Below, one piece after another: positions 3,418-37,332 of a stretch of 64,000 nucleotides of DNA. Positions within the stretch are counted from its first letter, which is position 1. Each line of letters starts with the position of its first letter. The stretch covers positions 1-64,000 of the forward strand of contig NZ_AUNE01000052.1 of assembly GCF_000447755.1 (NCBI RefSeq), written 5' to 3'. This DNA comes from Bacteriovorax sp. BSW11_IV. GTDB taxonomy: Bacteria; Bdellovibrionota; Bacteriovoracia; Bacteriovoracales; Bacteriovoracaceae. The position numbers were made by a program, and so were the translations under genes. The notes beneath the pieces are model-generated. The model saw only the letters and a program-made list of their open reading frames with translations. It was not told the DNA's origin and searched no databases.

Positions 3418-3501
3418 AATTGGTCAAGTTATTGGAATTTGCTAAAATTGTATTAATTATTTTTTATCAAGTTGATATTAACATTAAACGAGAGGTTTAA
3501 G

Positions 3502-19378: not shown

Positions 19379-19392
19379 GATATTTCCTTATT

Positions 19393-19791: not shown

Positions 19792-19794
19792 TTC

Positions 19795-19821
19795 TTAAGC
19801 GTCATTAACGTCATTGTCGTC
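19795..19821 (-). repeat. Three 9-bp GACG iteron-like units (copy A)
   Basis: On the minus strand GACGACAAT, GACGTTAAT and GACGCTTAA follow each other at exact 9-base spacing, overlapping the last codons and stop of the ATPase gene (encoding the Asn/Asp-rich tail). Matching triple arrays lie at 23361 and 34612. Confidence 0.65.
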
Positions 19822-21288: not shown

Positions 21289-21347
21289 AATTATCCTTTT
21301 TTTCATTAAATAGGCGAGCTTAGCCCGCCATGAATTTTAAATACTAT

Positions 21348-21722
21348 TTAGATATCTAATAGTGAGATAGCTTCTTCTGTAGTAGCATCTAAATAAAGGT
21401 TCTTAACAACTTCTGTTGATAGAAAATCATCATGCTCGACTTCTAAAGAAAAAGTGCGTCCAGAGTTTTTGAATGTTGATAGATCACCTTTTTGAGCTTT
21501 AATTAGAAACTCTTTACTTAGGTTGCTCTCTGGTGCAATCTCTTTGATTACTTTTTGAAGTCTTTTTTTATCAATCTCGCTATTAATTCTAAAGTAGGCA
21601 GGAATTAGTTTGTTTGTGTCACTTTCTTTAATTCTAATTGAAAGACTTACTGATGTACCTTGGTTTGAAACTCTAATTTCATGCAATGTACCAGTTGTTT
21701 TACGTGATTGTGATTTTGACAT
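21348..21722 (-). CDS. Unknown small protein of the replication arm
   Basis: 124 residues, starts with AGGAG before the ATG. The N-terminal half is beta-rich and basic (SRKTTGTLHEIRVSNQGTS, then LSIRIKESDTNK); the C-terminal half is acidic. No family recognised. Its position directly before the ATPase gene suggests a role in element replication, for example DNA binding. Confidence 0.6.
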   Translation of the reverse strand: MSKSQSRKTTGTLHEIRVSNQGTSVSLSIRIKESDTNKLIPAYFRINSEIDKKRLQKVIKEIAPESNLSKEFLIKAQKGDLSTFKNSGRTFSLEVEHDDFLSTEVVKNLYLDATTEEAISLLDI

Positions 21723-21838
21723 AATTTTCTCCTGTCATAGTTAATTCTCTAACTTGTTTTAGAGATCTAACTAGTTACGATAGGAGAAAAGGTTTTTCAG
21801 AATTTTAGTTGTGGAGCCTGTTGACCTCCACGAGGTCT

Positions 21839-23284
21839 TTAACTATTTGATAAGTCGTAGAGATCAACTTTTTTGACCAATGAGATATCTTTCTTTAGAG
21901 AAGCTATTAGTTGATTTTGTAGTGTTATTAAAAGGTTTTCATTTCCCTTGAGTCGTTCAAATGATGATATAACGATATTGTTGAGATGTTGGTATCGGTG
22001 TGAATCGTTAAAATAATCTTCAAATAAATCATATAAATCTTGAGGGTAAAATGAGAAATGAGATGCGTTTACTTCAAAAATTACCATTGATAGAAGTTCT
22101 GCTTTTGCTTCTCGATCGAGAGGATATCTTAAGTTTTTTTCATATAAATTTGTAAGTTCTGTAGTTAGGTCTTGTATCGTTTGTGGTGAAATTGTGCTTA
22201 TTTCTAATATGACAGGAGCAATAATGTTGAATATTGTTTTTAATGCACATTGATGAGATGCGCTTGATGATGAGTAATTGAAGTAGAATGAAACTTGCAC
22301 TTTATCAAATAGTGATTTGCTAATTATATTTGTCATCTTATTAAGCGCTTGGTCTATTGTTGATTTCCAAACTGAAACTCTTTCATCACTTGGTTCTTGT
22401 TGTCTATTTTTATGAAGATGTTCTAAGATTTTATTTCTGATAAAAGAAGATAGTTTATGCTGAAGCTCATGAAATTTTGATTCATTTTTAAGCTCTAAGA
22501 ATAGTCTTGTTCTTTTGTTATCGTTCCATATTCCATCAATAATGCCACTTAATTCGAAGAAAGATGTATAAGAGTCAATGGAAAATGTACTAGTTTCTGT
22601 TATGTTGAGCCAAAGATCAATGTAGTTTTTCGTTCTAGTTTTTAGAATATTTAGATAAAAAGGAGAAACGCACACACCCTGAATGATTGAGTTTGTTGAA
22701 ATAACTTGATCATCGTGCATCTCTTGAATAAAGCTTTCAATTAGTTCTCTCTCTTGCTTGTTAATATTAAGTAGTTCTAATAATCCCTCATGATCCTCAA
22801 ATTGATCTGAAACGACTGGGCTTTGGCTAGCTTGTCCAATAAGATTAATTTTACTTATATAGTTATACTTTGAGTCTAGATCGAAATGTTTGATAAGCTG
22901 AAATTGATTTGAGAGGCGTAAATTTAAAACTTCTATTAGTTTATTTAAGGGGACTTTCTTTAATAAAGATATTGCGTACAAGAGATACAGGGCATCAAGA
23001 TAGCCTGGAAAGGGAACCTTTGTGTTTTTTAAGAAGTCTGCTTGAGAAATACGAAACTTTTTGTTGTCCATGAAGTTTGCAAACCAGTCGGGTTTACTTT
23101 CAAGCTCACGATCTTTTAATTCTATATGTCTAACAATAGTCTGAATTTCATTTTTGTAATGTCTTGATGTTAACAATTGCTTAAGTAGAAGACAGAACTC
23201 ACCTGCCGGATTTGTTTCTCGCTGATTATCGACTCTGCGTAAAGCATTTTTTAGATTAGTTCTCAGTTCTTTAACTGTCTTCAT
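21839..23284 (-). CDS. Unknown 481-residue helical protein, first gene of the left arm
   Basis: Helical, hydrophilic, no signal peptide or membrane segment and no motif I can name. GAGGT precedes the ATG. It begins the leftward arm from the divergent promoter region at 23.3-23.5 kb. About 116 bases separate it from the next gene. Could be a replication initiator by position, but the sequence gives no positive support. Confidence 0.6.
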   Translation of the reverse strand: MKTVKELRTNLKNALRRVDNQRETNPAGEFCLLLKQLLTSRHYKNEIQTIVRHIELKDRELESKPDWFANFMDNKKFRISQADFLKNTKVPFPGYLDALYLLYAISLLKKVPLNKLIEVLNLRLSNQFQLIKHFDLDSKYNYISKINLIGQASQSPVVSDQFEDHEGLLELLNINKQERELIESFIQEMHDDQVISTNSIIQGVCVSPFYLNILKTRTKNYIDLWLNITETSTFSIDSYTSFFELSGIIDGIWNDNKRTRLFLELKNESKFHELQHKLSSFIRNKILEHLHKNRQQEPSDERVSVWKSTIDQALNKMTNIISKSLFDKVQVSFYFNYSSSSASHQCALKTIFNIIAPVILEISTISPQTIQDLTTELTNLYEKNLRYPLDREAKAELLSMVIFEVNASHFSFYPQDLYDLFEDYFNDSHRYQHLNNIVISSFERLKGNENLLITLQNQLIASLKKDISLVKKVDLYDLSNS

Positions 23285-23544
23285 TATAACCTCTGTGAGT
23301 TGTAAAGATCATTTTATTTTTACCAAATAGGAAAAAAATAGGCAAGAGAGCAAGAGGCAAGACGTTAATGACGATTGTGACGACAGATACTAATCATTTT
23401 ATGAGAGATGAAAAATTTCAAAAATAAATTTCAGATTTCGAAAAATCCGACTCTTCGCACCTAGATTGGTGTCATTTGAAAACATACCCAGGAAGTCTTC
23501 TTTGTTTCGAGGTACCGGGGTCGTTTATCTAAAAGGAGGATTTT
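23285..23544. promoter_or_regulatory. Divergent control region of the element
   Basis: A 260-base gap between the two arms of the element. It holds the second GACG triple array (23361-23387), an inverted repeat CACC-tagatt-GGTG near 23459-23472, and the AAAGGAGG ribosome site of the rightward gene. Promoters for both arms must lie here; I cannot assign them confidently. It is also the best candidate for a replication origin. Confidence 0.5.
23361..23387 (+). repeat. Three 9-bp GACG iteron-like units (copy B)
   Basis: GACGTTAAT, GACGATTGT, GACGACAGA at exact 9-base spacing. The first unit is identical to the middle unit of copy A. Confidence 0.65.
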
Positions 23545-24816
23545 ATGACTTCATCTATTAAACCAGTAAAAGAAATTCAAATTAACTTAAGCGAGGAGGA
23601 AACTATGCTTAGTAATGAACTAGAAGAGATTTTATGTGAGTTTTTTTATGTTTTACCGGAAGAAGGAACACAAGATTTCCTTGATGAGAGGTTTATTTAT
23701 GACCTTGCAGATGAAAAAGAGATTGAAAGAAGGATTAAGCAAGATCAGGATTGGCTTTCACAGGGTGAACCTGAAGTAGAGGAATTGGCAAAGTTAGAGG
23801 AGTTAGCAACAAGCTACTTTGAATCACCGACTAAGGTTTCTTACCCGAAGGAAGAGGTTCAAGAGTATGTAACTGGTTATGTACAATTTTTATCTGGAGT
23901 TGAGTTTACTAAAAATGGAGATGCTGTTGAAAAGTGGAAAGCAATTGGAAGTAAGGTTCAAGTAGGTACGAGCAAGATTTTAGACCCAGAGGGCTTAACC
24001 GTTTATCTGAAATTAAAAGGAATCGAACTATGTAAAACAACACGCATTGTTTTTTATGGGTTGCCTTTAAGTGAAATTGTTGGCTCTAGAATCTACAGAA
24101 AAGGAGAGCGTAAAAAGTTAACTCCTTTATCCAGTGATTATCAGAATATCTTACTTGCTATACCGGATTATGAAGCTTGTTCAGGAATGGAGAAGAGTAT
24201 TTATGACTCAATTGATAGCTTAATCAAAGAAGAGGTTTTGTATGGAACTGACTTGATGATAGATAGAGTAGCTCTGGGCCACTGGGAGATGACTAAGGCA
24301 AGATTAGAAGAGCTAAAAGCTGAAGAAGAAGAGAATCGTAACATTCATAAAATCCAGAGAATAGAAAAGAAAGTAACTCAGACAAAAAATGAATTTGATG
24401 AAAAGTTTAAAGAGGCAAGAGGGTTCATTGATAAACTTAATAAGAAGGAAGCGTCTTTTAATGACATTGAGAAGGAAAGTATTGAGTTGATTAAACAGGT
24501 TCTTTGGTTAGCAGAGAAGAAGGGGGAAAGAATTGAGGATAAGATTACATACTTCAAGTTGAAATCTCTTTACAGGAAATTAAAGTCAGATGAGCTTTTG
24601 AGTAATGGTGGAGTTAATGCATTAAAGTTCATTCAAAATGTTAATGATGGTGATCTCGTTGAAGTTCATTTACTTAGCTTAGATGAATTACAACAAATTA
24701 TGGATGTATTATGGAGTGGATGTCTTAGAATTAATCCAATGTATAAACAGACTTACTTCTCATTAAAAGAGAGATATCAGCACTTAAAAAGGGTTGAGGA
24801 ATTAAAGGCTGCATAA
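23545..24816 (+). CDS. Unknown acidic protein, first gene of the right arm
   Basis: 423 residues behind a strong AAAAGGAGG site. Rich in Glu and Lys; residues about 255-330 are a probable coiled coil (long charged helix). No signal peptide, membrane segment or known motif. It leads the rightward arm opposite the replication arm, so it may be an element control or partner protein; function unknown. Confidence 0.65.
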   Translation: MTSSIKPVKEIQINLSEEETMLSNELEEILCEFFYVLPEEGTQDFLDERFIYDLADEKEIERRIKQDQDWLSQGEPEVEELAKLEELATSYFESPTKVSYPKEEVQEYVTGYVQFLSGVEFTKNGDAVEKWKAIGSKVQVGTSKILDPEGLTVYLKLKGIELCKTTRIVFYGLPLSEIVGSRIYRKGERKKLTPLSSDYQNILLAIPDYEACSGMEKSIYDSIDSLIKEEVLYGTDLMIDRVALGHWEMTKARLEELKAEEEENRNIHKIQRIEKKVTQTKNEFDEKFKEARGFIDKLNKKEASFNDIEKESIELIKQVLWLAEKKGERIEDKITYFKLKSLYRKLKSDELLSNGGVNALKFIQNVNDGDLVEVHLLSLDELQQIMDVLWSGCLRINPMYKQTYFSLKERYQHLKRVEELKAA

Positions 24817-24866
24817 GCTCCGCTACCGCTCCGCATTTCGCTAACGCTCAATGAATTCTCAGGCTA

Positions 24867-24957
24867 TCGCCATTCGAATATAACAGCACAGCTGTGTCAA
24901 ACAATCGCCATAAGGCGAATCATAAAACATTAATTTATGAATAATTGGCTTCGCCAT
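24867..24957 (+). repeat. Three TCGCCAT repeats and hairpins upstream of ssb
   Basis: TCGCCAT occurs at 24867, 24905 and 24951. The middle copy forms a hairpin TCGCC-ataa-GGCGA (24905-24918), and ACAGC/GCTGT form another nearby. This is locally GC-rich compared with the element. Could be a leader, operator or nicking/transfer site; undecided. Confidence 0.4.
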
Positions 24958-24996
24958 TTAGGGCAAAGCTATATCAACAAACGTATGGAGGTATGT

Positions 24997-25329
24997 ATGT
25001 TTAGTAATACTATTTTAGTTGGACGATTAGGAAGTGATCCTGAATTGAAAAGAACTCAAAAGGGTGACTTTATTTGTAGTTTCTCTGTGGCCACGAATGG
25101 GAAATGGTTGAGCAATAATGGTCAAGAAGAGGAGAAGGTTACATGGCATAAAGTTGTTTGTTGGAATAAGCTAGCTGAACTTTGTTCTAGTTATCTGGCA
25201 AAAGGAAGACTAGTTCTTGTTGATTGTGAGATTGTTAAAAACTCATGGGAAGACAAGGATGGTAATAAACATGAGTCATGTGAGGTTAGAGCAAAAAGAG
25301 TTCTATTTTTAGATTCTAAAGATAAATAA
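24997..25329 (+). CDS. ssb: Single-stranded DNA-binding protein
   Basis: 110 residues, one OB-fold: MFSNTILVGRLGSDPELKRT, then the WHKVVCWNKLAE and LVDCEI strands typical of SSB. It lacks the long Gly-rich tail and the acidic DDDIPF-type C-terminus of chromosomal SSBs, ending instead in LDSKDK. The start at 24997 follows GGAGGT with only four bases between. A longer frame begins 20 codons upstream but adds nothing SSB-like. Supports element replication together with the ATPase. Confidence 0.9.
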   Translation: MFSNTILVGRLGSDPELKRTQKGDFICSFSVATNGKWLSNNGQEEEKVTWHKVVCWNKLAELCSSYLAKGRLVLVDCEIVKNSWEDKDGNKHESCEVRAKRVLFLDSKDK

Positions 25330-25373
25330 CTGAGGTCTATTCTTTAGCATAGGAGGTGTTATGGGAATAAAGA

Positions 25374-25556
25374 GTGAAGCAAAGTAATGAGCTATGTATG
25401 GAACTGTTGATCTATAGAGCAGTTCCATATCTTACTGTTCAAGTTGTACGTAGATATCCACTTGTTGGAATTGGATTAATTGTTACTGGAGCAATTATTG
25501 AAATTAATCGAATTAGGAAGAAGAAAAATAGCTTGTTAGTGAGATTCATACAGTAA
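25374..25556 (+). CDS. Possible small single-pass membrane protein
   Basis: 60 codons from a GTG, with one hydrophobic helix (YPLVGIGLIVTGAIIEI) followed by basic residues. The nearest strong ribosome site, AGGAGG at 25351, actually serves an 8-codon frame starting at the ATG at 25361 that ends TAATGA at 25385, so expression could be by re-initiation. Weakly supported. Confidence 0.35.
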   Translation: MKQSNELCMELLIYRAVPYLTVQVVRRYPLVGIGLIVTGAIIEINRIRKKKNSLLVRFIQ

Positions 25557-25575
25557 TTAGAATAGATTTCAGTTT

Positions 25576-25599
25576 CCCCTAGTTCCGACTAGGGGTTTT
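25576..25599 (+). terminator. Terminator-like hairpin before the zinc-ribbon gene
   Basis: CCCCTAG-ttccga-CTAGGGG followed by TTTT; the short T run makes it weak. Confidence 0.55.
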
Positions 25600-25610
25600 A
25601 TGGAGAGATT

Positions 25611-26054
25611 ATGAACGAAGAATTTCTAGAGAAATTGAATGAGATTGCTTTTCAGAAAAGTGAACCGTTCTGTTATGGATGCTATGTCATTTGTCCTTCC
25701 GGTAGATGTAGTAAATGTGGCAGTGATGACTTAATGAGACATCTAGATGGTGTCGGTGTTGAATGGGGAACGGACTGGATAATTAAAGAGCTTCTTTTAG
25801 ATATAGATGAAGTTGATCAAGAAGAAAGTTTTGATGAATATTTAGAGTCAGCTTATGAACAAGAATGTTCTGTAGCCTGGTTAAAGGTAGAGACATTGAG
25901 GATATTAAAAGAGCTTTGTGAATGTGATTACAGGATTGCACTTAATGATTGGATATCCTCTGAGGAAGAAGATGGTGAGATTGTAAGTTTTAATAATGGT
26001 GTAACTTATTACAAAGTTTCAGCAGTGAAAGAATATATTAAAGAAAACAGTTAG
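25611..26054 (+). CDS. Zinc-ribbon protein typical of mobile elements
   Basis: 147 residues. Near the N-terminus CYGCYVICPSGRCSKCGSDD gives two C-x2-C pairs, a zinc ribbon. The remainder is acidic, with GVGVEWGTDW and a late ISSEEEDGEIVSFNNGVTYY. From memory, proteins of this layout are common small hypothetical genes on plasmids and integrative elements of proteobacteria; their function is unknown to me. GGAGA precedes the ATG. A CCCGC-gaa-GCGGG hairpin follows the stop. Confidence 0.75.
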   Translation: MNEEFLEKLNEIAFQKSEPFCYGCYVICPSGRCSKCGSDDLMRHLDGVGVEWGTDWIIKELLLDIDEVDQEESFDEYLESAYEQECSVAWLKVETLRILKELCECDYRIALNDWISSEEEDGEIVSFNNGVTYYKVSAVKEYIKENS

Positions 26055-26079
26055 CCCCCCGCGAAGCGGGAAGGAGTTA

Positions 26080-26691
26080 ATGATGGAAAAGATAATTGCA
26101 ATTTACTGTAGGACCTCGACTAGTTTACAGGAAAACGGTTTACAGTCGCAGAGAAGGGCTCTGATTGAATACTGTAAAAGTCGAGGACATAAGAACTATG
26201 TTGTTTATGAAGACTTTGGAATATCTGGTGCAATAAAATCACGCCCAGCCTTGAATGAAATGATGGATAGAGTTGATAAGGGAGAAGTGGATATTGTTAT
26301 AGTTTATAGTTTTTCAAGATTTGCTAGATCAATGAAGCATCTTCTTGAGGCGCTAGATGTATTTAAGGAAAAAGGAACTGAGTTTATCAGTATAAGTGAG
26401 AATATTGATACAACATCAGCAGTAGGGAGTTTGATATTTCGAATACTGGCAAGCTTAAGTGAGTTCGAGCGGCAGTTAATATCTGAAAGAGTAAAAAATG
26501 GAATGATTAATGCAAAAGCTAAAGGGAAGCAAATTGGAAGGAGGAAAGAGAGACCAACAGATTCAATTCTGGAGTTGCGAAGAAAAGGGTTCACTTATAA
26601 GCAGATAAGTAAGTTATTAAATGTCTCTGAGGGAACAGTATGCAATGCTGTTAGGGATGGATTACTCAAGAATAAAAATAAAAAACCTTAG
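26080..26691 (+). CDS. Small serine resolvase/invertase
   Basis: 203 residues. Catalytic Ser13 in YCRTSTSLQENG, then the YEDFGISG, SFSRFARS and ASLSEFERQLISERVKNG segments of the resolvase/invertase family. A C-terminal helix-turn-helix follows (ILELRRKGFTYKQISKLL). AAGGAG precedes the ATG. It is distinct from the large integrase at the left end. It may resolve dimers or invert or stabilise the element; no inverted pair of target sites was recognised. Confidence 0.92.
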   Translation: MMEKIIAIYCRTSTSLQENGLQSQRRALIEYCKSRGHKNYVVYEDFGISGAIKSRPALNEMMDRVDKGEVDIVIVYSFSRFARSMKHLLEALDVFKEKGTEFISISENIDTTSAVGSLIFRILASLSEFERQLISERVKNGMINAKAKGKQIGRRKERPTDSILELRRKGFTYKQISKLLNVSEGTVCNAVRDGLLKNKNKKP

Positions 26692-26888
26692 TGAGTAAAA
26701 GCTTTAACTCATTAAGGAAATGGTAATTGAGTACCAAATTCGATGCTACACCAGGAATAAAAAGAACATTTTAAAAATAATAACAGAAAGGTAAGTACTT
26801 TAAACTTAGAGAGAAAATAGACTTTATCATCTAGATTGTACAGTAATTCACGAAACGTGGATATTTTAGGTACAAAAAGGAGAAAAAA

Positions 26889-27245
26889 ATGAAAAATAAT
26901 TTTACCGATATTACGTATTATTCAATTGGAGCTTTAGGAGTAGGTGCTGTGATACTTGGAGGAACTGTCGCCAATGGCATATTTGTTGGTGGGATGAGTA
27001 CTCTAGGAGTCGCTCTTTTATTAATTAAGCTAAAGGATAGCAACCCAAGAATATTCTACTGGATTTTAAAACATAATATTATGTCTGACCTAATTTTATC
27101 AGTTCTTCTTGTTATGCTTATGGGGACAAGTACAGTTACAGCAATAATAAGTGGAGCATCAGCAGCATTATTTTGTTCTGCTGGATTAACATATCTAAGT
27201 AAGCTTTTTGTTAAGAATTCAGAATCTAGTCAAATAGTGTCATGA
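26889..27245 (+). CDS. Small membrane protein
   Basis: 118 residues with three or four hydrophobic segments (YYSIGALGVGAVILGGTV, GGMSTLGVALLLI, LILSVLLVMLMG, ASAALFCSAGLTYL). AAAAGGAGAAAAAA precedes the ATG. No family recognised. It precedes the XRE regulator and may belong to the same module. Confidence 0.6.
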   Translation: MKNNFTDITYYSIGALGVGAVILGGTVANGIFVGGMSTLGVALLLIKLKDSNPRIFYWILKHNIMSDLILSVLLVMLMGTSTVTAIISGASAALFCSAGLTYLSKLFVKNSESSQIVS

Positions 27246-27324
27246 TTAGAGAAATAAGTGTCCAGATATGGGATAAATCTAATTAAATCTTGAACAGTTA
27301 GTAAAATATTCTTTGAGGTTCATT

Positions 27325-27627
27325 ATGGAGTTTAAAGAAAGACTAGCATTTCTTATTGAAGAAAAAGGGACAAATATGTCTGCCGTTTCAAAGGCGACTG
27401 GTATCCCTCGCTCTTCACTTCATAATTATCTACTCGGTACCGAAGTCGGATTGAGTAAATTAATCATACTTGCAGACTTTTTTAGTTGTAGTTTGGACTT
27501 CTTGGTATTTGGAGCTTCTGAAGGAACTCTGGATGATGAATTAGAAGTTGTTCAAGCTGAAATTAAATCTCAAGGACTATATGAAATTGTTTTAAGGAAG
27601 AAAAAGATTAAAAAGGAGTCGGAGTAA
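27325..27627 (+). CDS. XRE-family transcription regulator
   Basis: 100 residues. An N-terminal Cro/C1-type helix-turn-helix (MSAVSKATGIPRSSLHNYLLG) is followed by a short charged tail. The ATG at 27325 has TGAGG at the right distance. The stop overlaps the next ATG by one base (TAATG), so it is translationally coupled to the downstream membrane protein. Likely represses the element's own lipoprotein/membrane module. Confidence 0.82.
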   Translation: MEFKERLAFLIEEKGTNMSAVSKATGIPRSSLHNYLLGTEVGLSKLIILADFFSCSLDFLVFGASEGTLDDELEVVQAEIKSQGLYEIVLRKKKIKKESE

Positions 27628-28082
27628 TGAGTATTAAAAATGGAGTCGGAAGGAAGGGGTACATATTATCTATATTCCCTGGTTTGCTAATAACTTTAGC
27701 ATTGAGTGCTGTTACGTTCTACATGCATGCTAAAGATGTCATGGAGATAATTCACCGCGATCGACTAGAAGATATCATAAATTGGTTGTTGTATTTTGGG
27801 CCGAGAGATGGTCACCCATTGGCAACTCATTTCTGGGGAATAATAGGTATCACCGTTGCTGTATTTTTTATACTTTTCATCGGTATGTCTTACTTAAGAA
27901 TGAAGGATATGGCAGGAGAATCATTCCAGATAAAGAACTTTGGATTAATTATATTTGCCTTGGTCGTAAATTTCTTTTTTAGTAAGAAATTATTTATTGT
28001 TTTATTCCTGGTAATTATAGCTGTTCTATCAATCGTTGCAAAAAAGAAAGGCTTATCTCAAACAGCAAAGCAAGAATCATAA
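27627..28082 (+). CDS. Multi-pass membrane protein
   Basis: 151 residues with about four hydrophobic helices (ILSIFPGLLITLALSAVTFYM, GIIGITVAVFFILFIGMSYL, NFGLIIFALVVNFFF, FIVLFLVIIAVLSIVA). Coupled to the XRE gene by TAATG. No family recognised. Confidence 0.65.
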   Translation: MSIKNGVGRKGYILSIFPGLLITLALSAVTFYMHAKDVMEIIHRDRLEDIINWLLYFGPRDGHPLATHFWGIIGITVAVFFILFIGMSYLRMKDMAGESFQIKNFGLIIFALVVNFFFSKKLFIVLFLVIIAVLSIVAKKKGLSQTAKQES

Positions 28083-28099
28083 AAATATTGGAGGACAGT

Positions 28100-28690
28100 A
28101 TGAAATTATTGATTAGTATGATGATCTTAGGTGTATTTACATCTTGTGCAAGTAGACCATTTAAAGCGGAAAGCGAAGAGAACGATAAAATGATGTCTCA
28201 CCTAAGCCAAGGCGTGAAGTATTCTAATGGAGAGTTTCCGGACAGGTTCAATGATAATGGAATTCGCGATGGTTACGTATGGGGAGTTGGTAAATCAATC
28301 TATCCTATTGAAAAAGGAGTGCAGGTTGCTGAAGAGGCTGCGAAGTCCAATGCAAAGTTTGACTTAATTAATATGGCACCAACAATGATGGAGAGCCTAG
28401 TTAAAAAAATTATTTCAAGTGAGAGTGGAGAGTTTCAAGATTTCTCAAAGGAAGATATTTCAATCACTAAAATTAAAAACTTAACAGGAATTCAAGTCTC
28501 TGCAAAAGATACAATGTGTAAAACGAGAACAGAACCAGTAACTGGACCAGAGAAATATAAGATTTCTAGAGAGTGCAGAAGTGTAGCGAAAGTACGACTA
28601 AGTGACATGCGAGCAGCATTTGATTTTACACTTTCAGATAGATTATTAGCGAAGGTTGATAAGAAGAAAATACTTAGATCTATGGAATAA
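28100..28690 (+). CDS. Lipoprotein, LPP20-like
   Basis: 196 residues. Short signal peptide with lipobox GVFTSC. Then DGYVWGVGKSIYP and VAEEAAKSNAKFDL, which resemble the GVG and AxxxAxxxAxxxL elements of LPP20-type lipoproteins. GGAGG lies before the ATG at 28100. First of three successive lipoprotein genes in the element. Confidence 0.7.
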   Translation: MKLLISMMILGVFTSCASRPFKAESEENDKMMSHLSQGVKYSNGEFPDRFNDNGIRDGYVWGVGKSIYPIEKGVQVAEEAAKSNAKFDLINMAPTMMESLVKKIISSESGEFQDFSKEDISITKIKNLTGIQVSAKDTMCKTRTEPVTGPEKYKISRECRSVAKVRLSDMRAAFDFTLSDRLLAKVDKKKILRSME

Positions 28691-28707
28691 GAACAAAAGG
28701 TGCACTC

Positions 28708-29643
28708 ATGAGATTACTTATGTTGTTTTACATATTTGTTATTTCAGGGTGCTCTATGCTTAAACCATGGAAGCAACCGGAGCTACCACTTGTTCCTGGA
28801 AATAATACGTCATTAATAAATATTATAGAGAAAGGATTATCGGAAAAGAAGCTTGAAAAGATAGCTGAAAGTAAAGACATAAATAAAGATGTTGGTGGTG
28901 GTTGTGTGAGTTCTGATACTGGTTTTAACTTTGTAGGACTTAATCATTATGAAGTAGGTTATTATAGGCATTTAATATTTGGTTCAGAGAATACTAGTAT
29001 GATGCAAGTGAATAAAAGAGTTTCTAATTCAAAAGTTCAAAGCACAAAAAATAATATTAATCAGATTAATATGGAGATAAAGAGTGTTCCTTGTTTTATG
29101 AAACGAGACGGAAAGTATGTTTTTGTTAGAACAGAGTTATACCTTAACGAAAAAATATCCACGATACACGATAAGGTTTTGAGCAAAGATGCAGGAAAAT
29201 ATTTTGTGTTCTCTGGATTTAGATATAGATATTTACCAAAAAATCACTATATGTACCGATATGGGGATAGGAAAAAAGATGCGAGCCTTATTCCTGTTGA
29301 GGAGTATATGGAGGAGGCTGCTCATATGGTAGAAGTTGGTCAGATTAATAAAGATAAAAGTTATTCATGCATTAACTCTGATAAAACAGTGAATTATTTG
29401 GATATTGTTGAGGACTATACTGATTATTTTGATTATTTCTTCATTCCATCTGGTGAGATTATAACTTCTCAAATTAGGGAGCAAATCATAAGCGAGAAGT
29501 ATAATTCATATTATTATGAGTCTACACAAGTGCGTAGAGAAGGGATTAGACATGTTTGTTATAAGTGCTTACAAGAAGATCATGAAAAAGGTGTATGCAT
29601 TATTAAAAGAAGAGTTGTTTCAGTGTACCATCCTAATTTCTAA
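28708..29643 (+). CDS. Lipoprotein, paralog of the next gene
   Basis: 311 residues with signal peptide and lipobox VISGC. Contains a C-terminal half with VEEYMEEAAHMVEVGQINKD followed by a Ser-Cys; the downstream lipoprotein has the same QINKD-x3-SC element. Eight or so cysteines suggest disulfides in the envelope. No known family. Its 3' end overlaps the next gene by 62 bases. Confidence 0.7.
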   Translation: MRLLMLFYIFVISGCSMLKPWKQPELPLVPGNNTSLINIIEKGLSEKKLEKIAESKDINKDVGGGCVSSDTGFNFVGLNHYEVGYYRHLIFGSENTSMMQVNKRVSNSKVQSTKNNINQINMEIKSVPCFMKRDGKYVFVRTELYLNEKISTIHDKVLSKDAGKYFVFSGFRYRYLPKNHYMYRYGDRKKDASLIPVEEYMEEAAHMVEVGQINKDKSYSCINSDKTVNYLDIVEDYTDYFDYFFIPSGEIITSQIREQIISEKYNSYYYESTQVRREGIRHVCYKCLQEDHEKGVCIIKRRVVSVYHPNF

Positions 29644-30136
29644 TCTTATATTTCTTTCTTCATGCAGCAACTATAAAACATATGAGGTTCCACCATATAA
29701 CATACCTACATCTAACGAAGAGCTAGATATGTGCAGTATCGGAACTGGATACCGTATAAAAGAAAAAAGAACATTTATTGCAGATGAGTTGAGAAGGCCA
29801 ACTCAAAAAGAATTTGAAGAAGGCTTGGAGTTTCTTATAGCGACCAATCAGATAAATAAGGATCCACTGCTATCATGTTTTGACTCATTGTTTAGTATCA
29901 ACATTACTGGCTGTATTTTCGATTATGAGTCTGTATATTTGAAATATTTAATAGAAAATAGATTCGTGAAGCACCTAACAGCAGATGAAGTAAATGATAT
30001 GTTAGTTGCAAACCTAACAAAGCCTATTAATGCGTATAGCAGAATCCGTGATAATGAAAAAATTGTAGGGCGTTCATGTTGGAAAGTAATAAATGGAGCA
30101 AGGCATATATTTAATTCTTACCTAATTCGAAAGTAA
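29582..30136 (+). CDS. Lipoprotein, shares a motif with the preceding one
   Basis: 184 residues from the ATG at 29582, which has AAGAAG nearby. An unusually long signal sequence ends in the lipobox FLSSC. EEGLEFLIATNQINKD then SC matches the upstream lipoprotein's QINKD-x3-SC segment. Unknown family. The 62-base overlap with the preceding gene suggests coupled translation, though a longer frame from an ATG at 29516 is possible. Confidence 0.6.
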   Translation: MKKVYALLKEELFQCTILISNLIFLSSCSNYKTYEVPPYNIPTSNEELDMCSIGTGYRIKEKRTFIADELRRPTQKEFEEGLEFLIATNQINKDPLLSCFDSLFSINITGCIFDYESVYLKYLIENRFVKHLTADEVNDMLVANLTKPINAYSRIRDNEKIVGRSCWKVINGARHIFNSYLIRK

Positions 30137-30151
30137 AAAAGGAGGTAGGTT

Positions 30152-30436
30152 ATGGATGTTACTTTGATGAGGCTTGCTCTGTGCATAGATAAAGAGATAT
30201 CCAGTATTGATCTTGAAAAAGAGACGATTAGTGAAGTTTGTGTGGAATCAGCTCTAATGTTATTTGATAAACTTAATAAGAGGGATGAGAAGTTGGTTAA
30301 GCTTGCCAATAAACTTCATTTGAGGTGTAGTGAGGCGAAGAGGGTTTTTAATCGAAATCCTACGGAAATCACTGAACATAATTACAATTCTTTAATCCTA
30401 ATAGGTTTAACATTAGAGATGACATTTTTGCTTTAA
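30152..30436 (+). CDS. Small unknown protein
   Basis: 94 residues behind AAAAAAGGAGGTAGG, a very strong ribosome site. Helical and charged in the first two thirds, hydrophobic at the C-terminus (SLILIGLTLEMTFLL). Last gene of the lipoprotein run. The following 195 bases hold no gene I can support and probably carry the promoter of the restriction-modification block. Confidence 0.6.
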   Translation: MDVTLMRLALCIDKEISSIDLEKETISEVCVESALMLFDKLNKRDEKLVKLANKLHLRCSEAKRVFNRNPTEITEHNYNSLILIGLTLEMTFLL

Positions 30437-30631
30437 TAAAATGTGTGTATTTACTGGTGTTGAAGTATTTGAAGAATAAAAGGGAAACAATATTTTTTAT
30501 CATGATGAGCGGCGTTAAGGTGGCAGCTGTTTCTAGAAAGTGTTTTTTTAATGCGTCACGTTGCTGTTGTAGGGCTTAAAGTAGTGGTATTTTCGGTATT
30601 ACAGCTTCGTAATTATTTAGTTAATTACTAG

Positions 30632-31120
30632 ATGCAGCATGACATTCCTTACCTGGTATCATACTATTTTGGTATGGGACAACAATTATCAAAAGTAAAT
30701 TTAGCAAACTGCTTAGAGAGCTTAGATGCTCTATATGACTACCTTAATTCATGGAGTGAAATAAAAAACTCATTCAGAATTGATGGGGTTGAAAATATTA
30801 GCCCAGCAAACCCATCTCAATGGATATTTTTCAAAATTGAAAATTTTGAAAAAGTGTCTTTTGACGGCGTTGAGAAGTCTGGGGTTTCATGCGATGGTAC
30901 AAGCTGGAATGGCACCTACTATCTTTCAGGGGGAACTCGTTCTAAATCATTGTTAGAATTTTTAAATTTATATGAAAAGTATGATGGTAACCCAAATAAG
31001 ATTTTTAATCTGGCTTACACTAGTGGAAAAGAGGGTTTTCCAAACAAGAGAAGAATTGAGTTAAATGATTACAAGGAACCTGGTTGGAATTGTCTAAAAT
31101 ATAGAGCAAATAACTATTAA
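30632..31120 (+). CDS. Unknown protein upstream of the methyltransferase
   Basis: 162 residues. The ATG at 30632 directly follows an in-frame TAG and lacks a clear ribosome site, so the true start may be the Met 14 codons on. Soluble, with several Trp and aromatic residues and a Gly-Thr-rich centre (GTSWNGTYYLSGGT). No family recognised. Only 8 bases separate it from the cytosine methyltransferase, so it is presumably part of the restriction-modification operon. Confidence 0.65.
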   Translation: MQHDIPYLVSYYFGMGQQLSKVNLANCLESLDALYDYLNSWSEIKNSFRIDGVENISPANPSQWIFFKIENFEKVSFDGVEKSGVSCDGTSWNGTYYLSGGTRSKSLLEFLNLYEKYDGNPNKIFNLAYTSGKEGFPNKRRIELNDYKEPGWNCLKYRANNY

Positions 31121-31128
31121 GGGGATGC

Positions 31129-32256
31129 ATGGAAACTGCTATAAATAAAATTTTAAAATCGAAGAAGTCAAAAGAATTAACTCTAAGGTATGGAGAGTTT
31201 TTTAGTGGACCAGGTGGGCTAGGTTTAGGAGCATCTAAGGCATCTCTAGAGGTTGATGGGATTAAAGTGTCATTTGCTCATGAGTGGGTTAATGATATCG
31301 ATTTAGACTCATGCCATACATATTATAAAAATGTAATGAAAGATCATGGAAAAACTTTTCATGGTGACATTAGGGAGTTCGACTTTAATAAATTGACTCC
31401 GGTAGATGCATTTGCTTATGGCTTTCCATGCAATGACTTCAGCATCGTTGGAGAACATAAGGGTTTTAATGGTGAATATGGACCACTTTATACTTATGGC
31501 ATTAAAGTATTGAATAAATTTAATCCAGTGTTTTTTTTAGCGGAAAATGTTGGAGGTCTTGCTAGTGCAAACCAAGGAAAAGCTTTTAAAGCAATCTTGT
31601 CTGATTTATCTCAGGCTGGTAAGCACGGTTACGACATTGTACCTCACTTATACAAGTTTGAAGAGTATGGTGTTCCTCAAGCTAGGCATAGAATAATTAT
31701 GATTGGCATTAGGAGGGACTTAGGTGTTAGGTTTAAGGTGCCTAGACCAACGCATAATTCAACAAACTTTGTTACTTCGTTGGACGCAATAAATAAGCCT
31801 CGAATAAAGAAAGATGCCCATAATAATGAATTAACAAAACAATCAGCTCAAGTTATAGAGCGACTTAAGTATATAAAACCAGGGAAAAATGTTTGGGACT
31901 GCGAAGATGATATGCCTGAACATTTAAGGATCAATAGTAAGAAAACACGATTAAGCCAAATATATAAAAGGTTAGACCCGAATAAGCCATCTTATACAAT
32001 TACTGGTAGTGGCGGAGGTGGTACTCATGGCTATCACTGGGATGAAGATAGGGCTTTAACTAATAGGGAAAGAGCTAGGCTACAAACTTTTCCAGATGAT
32101 TTTGTTTTTGAGGGCAGTAAAGAGAGTGTTAGGAAACAAATAGGTATGGCTGTTTCTCCTAAAATGGCAGAGATTCTATTTAACTCTGTTTTAAAGTGTC
32201 TTGCAGGAGTTGAATATCCATCAATAAATGCTAGGTGGGAAGATTGGGATCAATAA
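31129..32256 (+). CDS. DNA (cytosine-5) methyltransferase
   Basis: 375 residues with the ordered C5-methylase motifs: motif I FFSGPGGLGLG (AdoMet), motif IV AYGFPCNDFS with catalytic Cys101, motif VI ENV (139-141), motif VIII QARHRIIMIG, a target-recognition stretch, and motifs IX/X RERARLQTFPDDF. AdoMet-dependent methylation of cytosine in a specific site. It lies in an element with an AlwI-family endonuclease and should protect that enzyme's site. The recognition sequence cannot be read from the protein. Confidence 0.93.
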   Translation: METAINKILKSKKSKELTLRYGEFFSGPGGLGLGASKASLEVDGIKVSFAHEWVNDIDLDSCHTYYKNVMKDHGKTFHGDIREFDFNKLTPVDAFAYGFPCNDFSIVGEHKGFNGEYGPLYTYGIKVLNKFNPVFFLAENVGGLASANQGKAFKAILSDLSQAGKHGYDIVPHLYKFEEYGVPQARHRIIMIGIRRDLGVRFKVPRPTHNSTNFVTSLDAINKPRIKKDAHNNELTKQSAQVIERLKYIKPGKNVWDCEDDMPEHLRINSKKTRLSQIYKRLDPNKPSYTITGSGGGGTHGYHWDEDRALTNRERARLQTFPDDFVFEGSKESVRKQIGMAVSPKMAEILFNSVLKCLAGVEYPSINARWEDWDQ

Positions 32257-32257
32257 G

Positions 32258-32860
32258 CTATTCTAGTTGTTTAGAGTAGTAGGAGTGTAGGAGGTGTATC
32301 CTCTTTTTGTTTTCCCCTGCTTTGAATTTGATTCCATCAAGTTTTTTCTTGTAGTTGATTTTGATATTTTTACTTTTTAGTAAATTTCTCATTTGGACTT
32401 GAGTTGGAGCCAGTTTGTTAGGGATCTTACACCTAAAGATTTTCCATTTGTCTTTAAATGGTTCCAGCAGGTTTAATGAGATATTATCTCTTTTTACGGC
32501 TTGAATAAAACTTGAGGGAACAACATAGGTTGAATTCGTATTAAATGAATAAACAATAACAACATCACAATCCTTTCTGGTTATGAGTTGAGGTTTAACC
32601 TTATCTTTTTGAATTTGTTGACCACTCCTTGTACCAGTTGTTACATTGACAGAGGATGTTGAAGTTGTTTTTACAGAGCATCTAAATAGGGTGCCATCGT
32701 GATCAAGAATTAGATCATATTTAGAGTCTCGCCAGGCTTGTATGTATATCATGTAGCCAGCATACATTGCTAATCCACTAATAATGGACTCACCAGCATA
32801 GCCTTTTAGGCTTCTGAAGCTTCCGTCTGGAAGCTTTGTAAGGTTTTGAAATTTCTTCAC
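32258..32860 (-). CDS. PD-(D/E)XK-like putative nuclease
   Basis: 200 residues. YAGESIISG (Glu24), YDLILD (Asp49) and CSVKTTS (Lys64) are spaced like small PD-(D/E)XK nucleases of the kind ending in V-K-T, although the residue two before Lys is Ser rather than Glu or Gln. The rest is basic with a C-terminal Lys-rich segment. It is transcribed against the methyltransferase (1-base gap) and divergently from the AlwI-type gene (68-base gap). Could be a second nuclease subunit, a nicking enzyme or an inactive control protein. Confidence 0.6.
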   Translation of the reverse strand: MKKFQNLTKLPDGSFRSLKGYAGESIISGLAMYAGYMIYIQAWRDSKYDLILDHDGTLFRCSVKTTSTSSVNVTTGTRSGQQIQKDKVKPQLITRKDCDVVIVYSFNTNSTYVVPSSFIQAVKRDNISLNLLEPFKDKWKIFRCKIPNKLAPTQVQMRNLLKSKNIKINYKKKLDGIKFKAGENKKRIHLLHSYYSKQLE

Positions 32861-32928
32861 TGTTACTCAACTTTTTTTTTTGTTTACCGATTAGATCGTC
32901 ATAATATTTAATTAACTTTAGGGATGTT

Positions 32929-34557
32929 ATGGCGGTTCATATAGATGGTTGTAGACGTTTGTGGATGTTTCCGAGAAATATTCGAAAAATTCATCCATGG
33001 AAGATATCTCAATTAGTCTCTATATTTAATGAATTAAATAGAAACTCTGAGTATGAGTGGCATGGAAAACAAGATATTCAGGATCGATTTTGCAAGCTAC
33101 TGGAAGAGACAGGCTTAAAAAGAGTAGGCGATCAATATGATCCAAAAAGTGGTGGACCGAGAACCTATTACAAGCAACTGGAACTGTTAGGTTTAGTTTT
33201 TACAAAGCCAGATAAAACAATTCATTTAACGATTGCTGGAGAAAAAATACTTAATGGAGAGCCTCCTGTTTCAATTCTTCAAAGAATGCTTCTGAGGCTT
33301 CAATACCCCTCTGTTTATAGTAAGAGTATGAATGTTAAGATAAATCCTGATATTAAAGTTAGGCCTTTCGAATTTGTGTTAAAACTTTTAAGAGATCCAA
33401 GGATAGAGTATTTAAAAAGCGATGATTTTTCTATACCAGTAATATGGGGACATAGTGATTCAGATTTAGAATTATGTATTCAGAAAGTTTTAAAGATTAG
33501 GAGTGGTAAACTGGAAATATCAGACCTGATTGATGATAAAGACTTATTATACACTCATAAAACAGTTGGTAGAACAATAGAGAATGCATTAGTTGATGTG
33601 AAAGATATTGGGAATACGTGCAAAAACTATTTGCAGTCATGTGGGCTTATTGCAGAATTTGATAAAAGCATTTTTGCGACAAATGTAAAAGTTTATTGTG
33701 CTACAGAATACTCATTAAATCTTTTAAAAGAGATAGAGGGAACTGGCTATATAGATAGCAATGTCTCAGATGAAGCATTTCAAAGAGAGTTTGGAAAACT
33801 AAATAATAAAAGGGATACAAGGGTATTGCTTGGCAGGAGTGTTGAGGTTGCAAAGAAGGACCCTGAGTATCTTCAAATTAAAAGGTCATTATTAAAAATT
33901 ATTTCTGAGACAGGTGCTGAATTTGATAAATCACAATTTATATCATTAATGAAGAATGAATATGGTTTTGCTGACACAAAGATTGAAAAAGTTTTAGATG
34001 ATTATTTTAAAGATTCACGTTCTAGTTATGAGGAGAGGTTGATTGAGGTCTCTACCGGAGGGATAAAGACAGCAAATGAGTTTGAAAAAATTGTCACTTC
34101 GATCTTTGGTGGTATCTTAGACTTTAAAGCCTCCCATATCGGTCAAAAGCATCGTAGTGCGGGAACAGGTGCTTATACAGATATAATTGTAGATATATCA
34201 GGTGAAGAAATCGTGCTAATTGATACTAAAGCGTCGCCATCTTATTCTTTGGGCTCTAATGATTTCGCCAAAATAAGCTCAAACTATATTAAAAATTATA
34301 AAGAATTACGACCGTCATCTTCTTTGAATTCATTTGGAGTTGTTGCAGGGGGGTTTAAAGGAAATGTTGAAAGTCGGTTGAGAGAAATTAAAGAGTTAAC
34401 AGGAGTACCTGCGTTTGCTATTACAGCTTCAGCTCTTGTTCGGTTGTCGAGCTATATTGAAAATAAGACTTTTGGAAAGGCAGATATTTTGAGATTGTTT
34501 TCTTCTTGTAGTGTCATAACAATATTAACTCTTGCTGAAGAGTTTGGTGATGTTTGA
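32929..34557 (+). CDS. AlwI-family type IIS restriction endonuclease
   Basis: 542 residues. The N-terminal 150 residues follow the AlwI/MlyI/Nt.BspD6I DNA-recognition layout: an RRLWMFPRNIRKIHPW opening, a GLVF and LTIAGEKILNGEPP stretch, and a ...QYPS... and PFEFVLKLL segment. The C-terminal nuclease has a PD-(D/E)XK core: Asp418 (TDIIV), then Asp432-Thr-Lys434 (LIDTKAS). Members cut a few bases from an asymmetric site, or nick it. Partner of the C5 methyltransferase. AGGGA lies upstream of the ATG. Sequence specificity unknown. Confidence 0.87.
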   Translation: MAVHIDGCRRLWMFPRNIRKIHPWKISQLVSIFNELNRNSEYEWHGKQDIQDRFCKLLEETGLKRVGDQYDPKSGGPRTYYKQLELLGLVFTKPDKTIHLTIAGEKILNGEPPVSILQRMLLRLQYPSVYSKSMNVKINPDIKVRPFEFVLKLLRDPRIEYLKSDDFSIPVIWGHSDSDLELCIQKVLKIRSGKLEISDLIDDKDLLYTHKTVGRTIENALVDVKDIGNTCKNYLQSCGLIAEFDKSIFATNVKVYCATEYSLNLLKEIEGTGYIDSNVSDEAFQREFGKLNNKRDTRVLLGRSVEVAKKDPEYLQIKRSLLKIISETGAEFDKSQFISLMKNEYGFADTKIEKVLDDYFKDSRSSYEERLIEVSTGGIKTANEFEKIVTSIFGGILDFKASHIGQKHRSAGTGAYTDIIVDISGEEIVLIDTKASPSYSLGSNDFAKISSNYIKNYKELRPSSSLNSFGVVAGGFKGNVESRLREIKELTGVPAFAITASALVRLSSYIENKTFGKADILRLFSSCSVITILTLAEEFGDV

Positions 34558-34611
34558 TAAATACGGCCAATAATTCCTTATGAAAGTTACACGCTAGGAA
34601 GTGGTAAGGGT

Positions 34612-34638
34612 GACGGTAATGACGGTAATGACGATCTT
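34612..34638 (+). repeat. Three 9-bp GACG iteron-like units (copy C)
   Basis: GACGGTAAT, GACGGTAAT, GACGATCTT at exact 9-base spacing, 145 bases inside the right end of the element. Confidence 0.65.
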
Positions 34639-34760
34639 TTATTCTTAACAAAGGCTTATATTTAATAATTAGGGATTCTCAATAACTTTGGGGATAATAG
34701 TTCTTTTTCAATAAGTATTTAAAATTATGAAAGTTGTGCAGTCTGATACCTAAGAATTGT

Positions 34761-34790
34761 AGTTCGATAAACTTCTACGTCGGGGCACCA
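34761..34790 (+). repeat. 30-bp tRNA-3'-end-like repeat, copy 1 (contains attR core)
   Basis: AGTTCGATAA, ten variable bases, then CGGGGCACCA. Same layout and length as copies at 35861 and 36571, and similar to the T-arm and 3' end of tRNA-Phe (GTTCGAT ... GGGCACCA). Confidence 0.65.
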
Positions 34791-34791
34791 T
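34783..34791 (+). repeat. Right attachment repeat (attR core)
   Basis: GGGCACCAT, exact copy of the tRNA-Phe 3' end sequence at 17787-17795; marks the right boundary of the element. Confidence 0.7.
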
Positions 34792-34829
34792 AAAAAACCA
34801 GATGTTTAACCCACATCTGGTTTTTTTTT
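34792..34829 (+). terminator. Probable original terminator of tRNA-Phe, now at the element's right edge
   Basis: AAAAAACCAGATGT-ttaaccc-ACATCTGG followed by nine T. It follows the attR core directly, so before insertion it would have lain just after the tRNA. Confidence 0.8.
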
Positions 34830-35853: not shown

Positions 35854-35860
35854 TATCGCA

Positions 35861-35890
35861 ATTCGATAAGTGCCCACATCAGGGCACTAA
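35861..35890 (+). repeat. 30-bp tRNA-3'-end-like repeat, copy 2
   Basis: ATTCGATAAG, then TGCCCACATC and AGGGCACTAA. Aligned from 35861 it matches copy 1 at the TTCGATAA and GGGCAC-A positions with identical spacing. Confidence 0.55.
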
Positions 35891-35891
35891 G

Positions 35892-35925
35892 AAAAAACCA
35901 GATGTTAATCCACATCTGGCTTTTT
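35892..35925. terminator. Terminator almost identical to the one at 34792
   Basis: AAAAAACCAGATGT-taatcc-ACATCTGG-CTTTTT. The stem is the same as that at 34798-34820. It serves the upstream gene and, on the other strand, the convergent gene ending at 35928. Confidence 0.8.
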
Positions 35926-36374: not shown

Positions 36375-36570
36375 AACAAATCCTCTGATACCTACCGCCG
36401 ATTGTATCTTATGAATAATAATAAATTTTTTAGTGATACGGAGTGAGGTACTCTTTTGGCGGACAGGCTTCTCCGTGAAACCTTTTATATTATGTCATTA
36501 AATTAAAAATAAATGAAGATTTTTTTTCGCAACAAAAATTTAATAGGTTATGGCATCACTATTCACAGAC

Positions 36571-36600
36571 AGTTGGATAATTGGCCACGTCAGGGCACTA
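36571..36600 (+). repeat. 30-bp tRNA-3'-end-like repeat, copy 3
   Basis: AGTTGGATAA, TTGGCCACGT, CAGGGCACTA: same length and layout as copies 1 and 2, and overlapping by 3 bases the stop of the WYL regulator gene. Confidence 0.55.
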
Positions 36601-37332
36601 AATTTTTTGAAAGAATTCACCAGCGCCTTCAATCATTTTTCCCTTATTTCTTAACTTAAAATGTATATTAGTTCTTTTTGTTGTTAAGATGCGATCAATT
36701 CGAAAGAGGCGCTCTGCTTTTCTTAAATCATCCCAGCATAAAAAATACCATATAGGATAAATAAGACATAGCATTTGGGGTTCAATAAGGCGCTCAGTGA
36801 TTTCGCCTGCCGCTGATTTATAAGTTATTTGAATTTTGGTGAAGTTGAAAAAGCTATCGGTCAAATCTTTTAAGACATCTTTTTTTGGTGTCTGGTAATT
36901 TTCAAGCACATCATGTGTTGCATGATCACCAATAAGAATTCGTTTTCTTATTTTCGCAATGACTTGTTGTTGCTCTATGGGAAAAGCGGATGAAATTCTT
37001 TTTTTTATTGAATTTATATTATCTGTGAAAAGGGGAGAGTTGAGTGATTCTGTTATGGCCAATGAAGTTAAAAGAGTTATGACTTCAGAGTTACTAAGTT
37101 GCAAATTATTTAGACCCCATCTTCCCACAATCGAAATACCACCACCGCGTCCTTTATCGGAGATGATAGGAACTCCGGCCTCTTTGAGTTCGGCAAGATC
37201 TCTCATGAGTGTTCGATAGCTAATTTCAAGTTCATCACATAAACGAGCACTCGTCCAAAAACTCTCTGATCTTAGGCAAGCAACGATTTGTTCTTGTCTG
37301 TCTTTCTTTTCTTTTAATGATCCTTTTCCCAT
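36598..37332 (-). CDS. YafY/PafC-type WYL-domain transcription regulator
   Basis: 244 residues. N-terminal helix-turn-helix of the DeoR/HTH_11 kind (WTSARLCDELEISYRTLMRDL) and the wing VPIISDKGRGGGIS, then a C-terminal WYL domain (YPIWYFLCWDDLRKAERLFRIDRI). Divergent from the epoxide-hydrolase-like gene with 71 bases between, so it probably regulates that gene and itself in response to a small ligand. Confidence 0.88.
   Translation of the reverse strand: MGKGSLKEKKDRQEQIVACLRSESFWTSARLCDELEISYRTLMRDLAELKEAGVPIISDKGRGGGISIVGRWGLNNLQLSNSEVITLLTSLAITESLNSPLFTDNINSIKKRISSAFPIEQQQVIAKIRKRILIGDHATHDVLENYQTPKKDVLKDLTDSFFNFTKIQITYKSAAGEITERLIEPQMLCLIYPIWYFLCWDDLRKAERLFRIDRILTTKRTNIHFKLRNKGKMIEGAGEFFQKI

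What the first reader, a model, noticed from the sequence alone, without database searches (positions are those of the whole stretch)
32258..34557. Restriction block pairing an AlwI-type endonuclease, a C5-methylase and a second PD-(D/E)XK-like protein
In 3.5 kb lie an unknown 162-residue protein, a C5-cytosine methylase, a convergent small PD-(D/E)XK-like protein and an AlwI-family endonuclease. From established knowledge, Nt.BspD6I of the AlwI family is the large subunit of a heterodimer whose small subunit is a separate nuclease of about 186 residues. The 200-residue protein here could play a comparable role, although it does not look like that small subunit in sequence. A single C5-methylase serving an asymmetric site would protect only one strand unless helped.
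Basis: partly seen in the sequence, partly recalled or inferred. Interest (0 to 1): 0.7.

Follow-up and report, generated by a model that had tools for sequence, protein, structure and literature searches.

The report
One-methylase restriction system with spare nuclease
This is a DNA-defence (restriction-modification) gene pair of a known general kind, in which one methylase probably protects both DNA strands because it reads a nearly symmetric site; the small extra nuclease beside it is not the missing half of the cutting enzyme but a relative of a homing endonuclease that repeatedly turns up beside methylases of the same apparent specificity.

Summary
The genes are as described: P0002 (30632-31120+), a C5-methylase (31129-32256+), a convergent PD-(D/E)XK protein P0001 (32258-32860-) and a Type IIS-like endonuclease P0004 (32929-34557+). 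P0004 joins an N.BspD6I-like recognition region to a FokI-like cleavage domain. The methylase belongs to a widespread family (54-61% identity over many phyla). By its neighbours (NgoFVII-type PLD nuclease plus Z1 ATPase = CglI/NgoAVII architecture) it reads GCNGC-type sites (GCSGC, GCWGC). Such quasi-symmetric sites let one methylase protect both strands, as described for BbvI (GCAGC/GCWGC), so the strand puzzle disappears. The methylase-AlwI pair recurs in 27 loci without P0001, and 24 of 24 genomes checked (22 with this pair) lack a P0001 relative. P0001 is therefore not an obligate small subunit. Its closest solved relative is the homing endonuclease I-Ssp6803I. Its ten nearest sequence relatives all lie beside another C5-methylase with the target-recognition segment of Bsp6I (GCNGC) methylases. 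Best reading: a BbvI-like Type IIS system plus an accessory, possibly second, GCNGC-type nuclease sharing the methylase. P0001 has Ser where its family has Gln in the active site, so it may be inactive. Site and activity are untested.

The parts
30632..31120 (+). P0002, 162-aa protein of unknown function, 8 bp upstream of the methylase and probably co-transcribed
   Evidence: ORF and better codon score in frame than shifted; no family match above cut-off; one weak relative inside a 458-aa protein of a related genome
31129..32256 (+). P0003, C5-cytosine methylase of the GCNGC-type family
   Evidence: DNA_methylase 7.7e-67; 54-61% identical to methylases of 80 genome loci, many beside RE_NgoFVII and Z1 genes
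32258..32860 (-). P0001, 200-aa PD-(D/E)XK protein (GTG start), PDDEXK_5 family, I-Ssp6803I-like fold
   Evidence: PF11645 5.5e-12; profile hit to 2ost 3.5e-5; fold match to 2ost Z 14.1, 118 residues, rmsd 2.8
32789..32791 (-). P0001 E24, first acidic active-site position
   Evidence: aligned with E/Q of relatives
32714..32716 (-). P0001 D49, invariant active-site Asp
   Evidence: invariant in A6
32675..32677 (-). P0001 S62, where the subfamily has Gln (QxK)
32669..32671 (-). P0001 K64, invariant active-site Lys
   Evidence: invariant in A6
32929..34557 (+). P0004, 542-aa endonuclease: BspD6I-like recognition region plus FokI-like cleavage domain
   Evidence: A7 profile: N.BspD6I 9e-27, FokI 6e-11; predicted structure (mean pLDDT 79) matches N.BspD6I 3e-13 and FokI 3e-11
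34180..34230 (+). P0004 catalytic motif D418 ... D432-T-K434
   Evidence: D432 and K434 invariant, D418 nearly so, in 22 relatives

Best explanation
The methylase P0003 and endonuclease P0004 form a complete Type IIS-like restriction-modification system. P0003 methylates a quasi-palindromic GCNGC-type site (GCWGC, GCSGC or GCNGC; which one is not determined), so one enzyme marks both strands (inferred from family). P0004 reads an asymmetric form of that site with its BspD6I/AlwI-like N-terminal region and cuts outside it by pairing two FokI-like cleavage domains (fold shown by prediction, action inferred). P0001 is not needed for this. It belongs to a subfamily of I-Ssp6803I-fold nucleases found beside C5-methylases of the GCNGC type, and is most likely an accessory or second restriction nuclease that shares the methylase's protection. 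It may be weakened or inactive, because one metal-binding position is Ser instead of Gln.
For: Methylase-AlwI-type pair in 27 of 84 loci, five of them found through the endonuclease. The same methylase family pairs with RE_NgoFVII PLD nuclease plus Z1 in 16 loci, the CglI/NgoAVII/BceSIV architecture whose methylases read GCSGC or GCWGC (PMC4267653, PMC10734518). One methylase for an asymmetric site is described for BbvI and MlyI (PMC4081073). P0004 profile and fold match N.BspD6I and FokI; catalytic D432/K434 invariant. P0001: nearest solved structure I-Ssp6803I; ten of ten nearest relatives lie within 1 kb of a C5-methylase; those methylases share the PTLTANMGTGGHNVP segment with methylases paired to Bsp6I endonucleases, and a Bsp6I-type methylase protects GCNGC (PMC9465063).
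Against: No specificity was measured. P0003 has a long branch and no firm place in its family tree. P0001 is only 24-34% identical to its relatives, lacks their ~150-residue N-terminal part and has Q62S. P0001 is the only member found beside this methylase lineage. GCNGC is not depleted in the window, which neither supports nor refutes. The P0001 model is of low confidence overall (mean pLDDT 61, core about 84).
Confidence: 0.6

Rival explanations
1. One reading: P0001 is a second-strand subunit of P0004, as the 186-residue subunit is for Nt.BspD6I.
For: P0004 has a BspD6I-like N-terminal region; P0001 is adjacent, of similar size and has a nuclease fold.
Against: No P0001 homolog in any other methylase-AlwI locus, and none in 24 of 24 related genomes. 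P0004 has a FokI-like cleavage domain that can in principle dimerise. Closest structure of P0001 is I-Ssp6803I. P0001 is transcribed in the opposite direction.
Confidence: 0.07
2. P0001 is a free-standing homing endonuclease (selfish gene) that landed between methylase and endonuclease.
For: Best fold and profile match is the homing endonuclease I-Ssp6803I; it sits in reverse orientation between two genes that elsewhere are adjacent; it occurs in a mobile-looking stretch.
Against: Its nearest relatives form compact cassettes with C5-methylases rather than random insertions; no intron was found here (Rfam, only tRNAs).
Confidence: 0.2
3. P0001 is a decayed restriction nuclease left from an earlier GCNGC system.
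For: Missing N-terminal part and Q62S; a frame-shifted short form beside a Bsp6I-type methylase in the same phylum.
Against: Frame is intact over 200 codons, E24, D49 and K64 are kept, codon score favours the frame.
Confidence: 0.2
4. P0001 replaces Vsr and repairs T:G mismatches made by 5mC deamination.
For: Vsr lies near the methylase in 36 of 84 relatives but is absent from this genome; P0001 sits where Vsr often sits and its kin follow C5-methylases.
Against: Vsr and the P0001-like protein occur together in L098 and L117.
Confidence: 0.08

Closest known systems
BbvI-type one-methylase Type IIS systems (BbvI GCAGC 8/12 with M.BbvI GCWGC; MlyI GAGTC with GASTC)
   Same: One methylase for an asymmetric-cutting endonuclease; GCNGC-type methylase family; a FokI-like cleavage domain would fit distant cutting
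AlwI/BspD6I endonucleases
   Same: N-terminal region and whole fold match N.BspD6I
   Different: Cleavage domain is closer to FokI; no small subunit; C5- instead of adenine methylases
CglI/NgoAVII/BceSIV systems
   Same: Same methylase family
   Different: Those use a PLD nuclease and a Z1 ATPase; here an AlwI/FokI-type endonuclease
I-Ssp6803I homing endonuclease (PDDEXK_5)
   Same: Fold and E-D-x-K positions of P0001
   Different: Not in an intron; beside a methylase; Ser at the Gln position; 60-residue C-terminal extension
Bsp6I (GCNGC) systems
   Same: P0001's relatives lie beside Bsp6I-type methylases, twice with a Bsp6I endonuclease as well
   Different: P0001 itself lies beside another methylase lineage (about 30% identity); four plasmid Bsp6I systems have no such gene

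Membership tests
AlwI/BspD6I family (P0004) | Sequence similarity over the recognition region | tested here: met
   A7 profile to N.BspD6I 9e-27; but RE_AlwI PF09491 matches only 6 of 22 relatives and not P0004 itself
AlwI/BspD6I family (P0004) | PD...(D/E)XK catalytic motif | tested here: met
   D418...D432xK434
BspD6I heterodimer | Separate small nuclease subunit needed for the second strand | tested here: inconclusive
   No homolog beside any related pair or in 24 genomes; not assayed
FokI-type cleavage | FokI_cleav_dom | tested here: met
   7.1e-7, above cut-off; 19 of 22 relatives match
GCNGC-type C5-methylase (P0003) | C5-methylase domain | tested here: met
   7.7e-67
GCNGC-type C5-methylase (P0003) | Methylates GCNGC, GCWGC or GCSGC | not testable with these tools
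   Inferred from neighbours and papers
BbvI-like Type IIS system | Asymmetric recognition and shifted cleavage | not testable with these tools
   Needs purified enzyme
PDDEXK_5 / I-Ssp6803I (P0001) | Family profile match over the curated cut-off | tested here: met
   46.3 bits against 26.1
PDDEXK_5 / I-Ssp6803I (P0001) | E-D-Q-x-K active site | tested here: not met
   Gln replaced by Ser62; E24, D49, K64 kept
PDDEXK_5 / I-Ssp6803I (P0001) | Intron-borne homing | tested here: inconclusive
   No intron family found; homing not testable
Vsr | Vsr profile match | tested here: not met
   No Vsr match for P0001 among Pfam hits; none in the genome

The most novel reading that the evidence does not exclude
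P0001 belongs to an undescribed family of restriction nucleases derived from the I-Ssp6803I homing-endonuclease fold, specific for GCNGC-type sites; here it serves as a second restriction enzyme of unrelated fold that shares one methylase with a Type IIS endonuclease.
Probability: 0.3. Interest if true: 0.6.

Novelty: new variant of a known kind. Interest (0 to 1): 0.38.

Why it matters
It removes an apparent paradox (one C5-methylase, asymmetric-cutting endonuclease) by tying the system to the GCNGC-type methylase family. It also shows that one conserved methylase family exchanges at least three unrelated endonuclease types: AlwI/FokI-like, PLD with or without Z1, and an unnamed 279-320-residue nuclease. 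And it points to a small methylase-linked nuclease family that would connect homing endonucleases with restriction enzymes, which can be tested with a few clonings.

Tried and rejected
Looked for P0001 relatives in plasmids and viral contigs with P0001 alone or with one relative: nothing; they appeared only with a relative's sequence or profile. Looked for P0002 relatives in viral contigs: none; its function stays open. The TRA-1 match of P0002 (0.0043, below cut-off) is taken as chance. A second methylase next to P0003 in relatives (first seen as 'MT2') proved mostly to be RE_NgoFVII PLD nucleases joined by clustering. GCNGC depletion in the window: none, uninformative. The empty site of the mobile stretch could not be read in the one genus mate. 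The BspD6I small subunit did not appear among fold matches of P0001; absence from such a list is not proof. NhoI/Eco15I (methylated GCNGC) matched P0001 at Z 8-9, no better than PvuII, so no weight was put on it.

Full report
Observation. The four ORFs are present as described: P0002 30632-31120+, methylase P0003 31129-32256+, P0001 32258-32860-, endonuclease P0004 32929-34557+. P0003 and P0001 converge with their stop codons one base apart; P0001 and P0004 diverge across 68 bases.

P0004. Pfam gives a FokI cleavage domain above cut-off (7.1e-7). Alone, its N-terminal half matches N.BspD6I only weakly (1e-3). With 21 relatives from genome and viral loci the profile matches N.BspD6I at 9e-27 (positions 4-276) and FokI at 6e-11 (positions 318-509). 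A predicted structure (mean pLDDT 79, pTM 0.74) has N.BspD6I and FokI as its best solved matches. D432 and K434 are invariant and D418 nearly so. P0004 thus looks like a BspD6I-type recognition region with a FokI-type nuclease. From established knowledge FokI cuts both strands by dimerising its cleavage domain, so no small subunit is required in principle.

P0003. It is 54-61% identical to methylases of 80 loci from many bacterial phyla and one archaeon. Of 84 loci classified, 27 carry an AlwI-type endonuclease related to P0004 within 4.5 kb (3 of them were also tagged as having a PLD nuclease; in L023 that tag is a second C5-methylase, so two, L060 and L078, hold). A further 16 have an NgoFVII-type PLD nuclease plus Z1 ATPase, 12 a PLD nuclease alone, 1 a Z1 gene alone, 15 an unnamed 279-320-residue nuclease (PADLOC PDLC03411) and 13 none of these. 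Five of the 84 (L004-L007, L090) were found through the endonuclease, so the proportion is not unbiased. The PLD-Z1 arrangement is that of CglI, NgoAVII and BceSIV, whose C5-methylases read GCSGC or GCWGC (PMC4267653; list of relatives in PMC10734518). P0003 is therefore inferred to read a GCNGC-type site. The middle base cannot be told: P0003 has a long, unplaced branch in the tree.

Strand protection. PMC4081073 states that a few Type IIS systems have one methylase because the endonuclease sees the site as asymmetric and the methylase as symmetric and ambiguous, naming BbvI (GCAGC; methylase GCWGC) and MlyI (GAGTC; methylase GASTC). A caution: a related-specificity enzyme, M.BatI, methylates GCSGC on one strand only (PMC8936443).

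P0001 is not a required partner. No homolog of P0001 or P0002 lies in any of the related methylase loci. A P0001-family profile finds nothing in 24 genomes, 22 of which carry the methylase-AlwI pair. Its best solved matches by profile, Foldseek and VIA-align are I-Ssp6803I (3.5e-5; 4e-5; Z 14.1 over 118 residues, rmsd 2.8). The model is of low overall confidence (pLDDT 61, core about 84).

What P0001's family does. In 291 genomes of the phylum only two other genomes have a P0001 match, and both matches follow a C5-methylase. Phage and viral-contig relatives (L097-L104) are also within 1 kb of a C5-methylase: ten of ten in all. PDDEXK_5 proteins of another subfamily in the same phylum (L093, L094) have no methylase in the short stretch held. 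The methylases beside P0001's relatives are 41-63% identical to those paired with Bsp6I endonucleases on plasmids, with the segment PTLTANMGTGGHNVP mostly identical. In L008 and L098 a Bsp6I-type endonuclease is present as well. A Bsp6I-type methylase gives GCNGC protection (PMC9465063). So P0001 sits beside a GCNGC-type methylase, and its relatives sit beside a different lineage of GCNGC-type methylases. Shared specificity is the simplest reason, and a second nuclease covered by the same methylase is the best guess. L060 and L078 show that one methylase of this family can lie with two endonucleases.

Doubts. P0001 lacks the ~150-residue N-terminal part of most relatives (a short form, frame-shifted, exists in G277) and has Ser62 where relatives have Gln. 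It could be inactive, or a homing enzyme. P0002 remains unexplained. No activity or specificity was measured; all mechanism statements are inferences from family, fold and neighbourhood.

Noticed in passing
window 34760-34811, 35859-35911, 36570-36601: Three imperfect copies of a 32-52-nt repeat, two followed by a hairpin and T-run, flanking the two genes downstream of the restriction block.
   Followed up: no
window 17699-34800: Mobile-looking stretch: serine recombinase ORF running antisense through tRNA-Phe, single-strand binding protein at 24937-25329, second resolvase at 26080-26691, restriction block at its right end; tRNA-Phe and its terminator are conserved in a genus mate but what follows is not.
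   Followed up: partly
L010, L012, L022, L024, L026, L029, L031 and others: Unnamed 279-320-residue nuclease (PADLOC PDLC03411) paired with the same methylase family, mainly in candidate phyla.
   Followed up: partly
L036, L050, L055, L056, L057, L073, L078: Free-standing 121-139-residue proteins; one (L073) weakly resembles the NgoFVII B3-like DNA-binding domain; they lie beside AlwI-type or PLD-Z1 systems.
   Followed up: partly
L097 2920-5878: Methylase plus P0001-like nuclease cassette lying between two copies of the start of a terminase small-subunit gene in a prophage, as if inserted with target duplication.
   Followed up: no
L004-L007: 158-175-residue proteins, HTH-like by eye, overlapping or just before the AlwI-type gene start; possible controller proteins, absent in the window.
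   Followed up: no
L118 around 3443-3860 (G277): Short P0001-like gene without the N-terminal part, frame-shifted, directly after a Bsp6I-type methylase.
   Followed up: partly
G000:C27:83439-84464: A second C5-methylase elsewhere in the host genome, with no obvious endonuclease in the 4 kb read.
   Followed up: no
L092 547-1923: C-terminal part of a 458-residue protein resembles P0002 residues 30-118 (31% identity, 1.6e-6), the only relative found.
   Followed up: no
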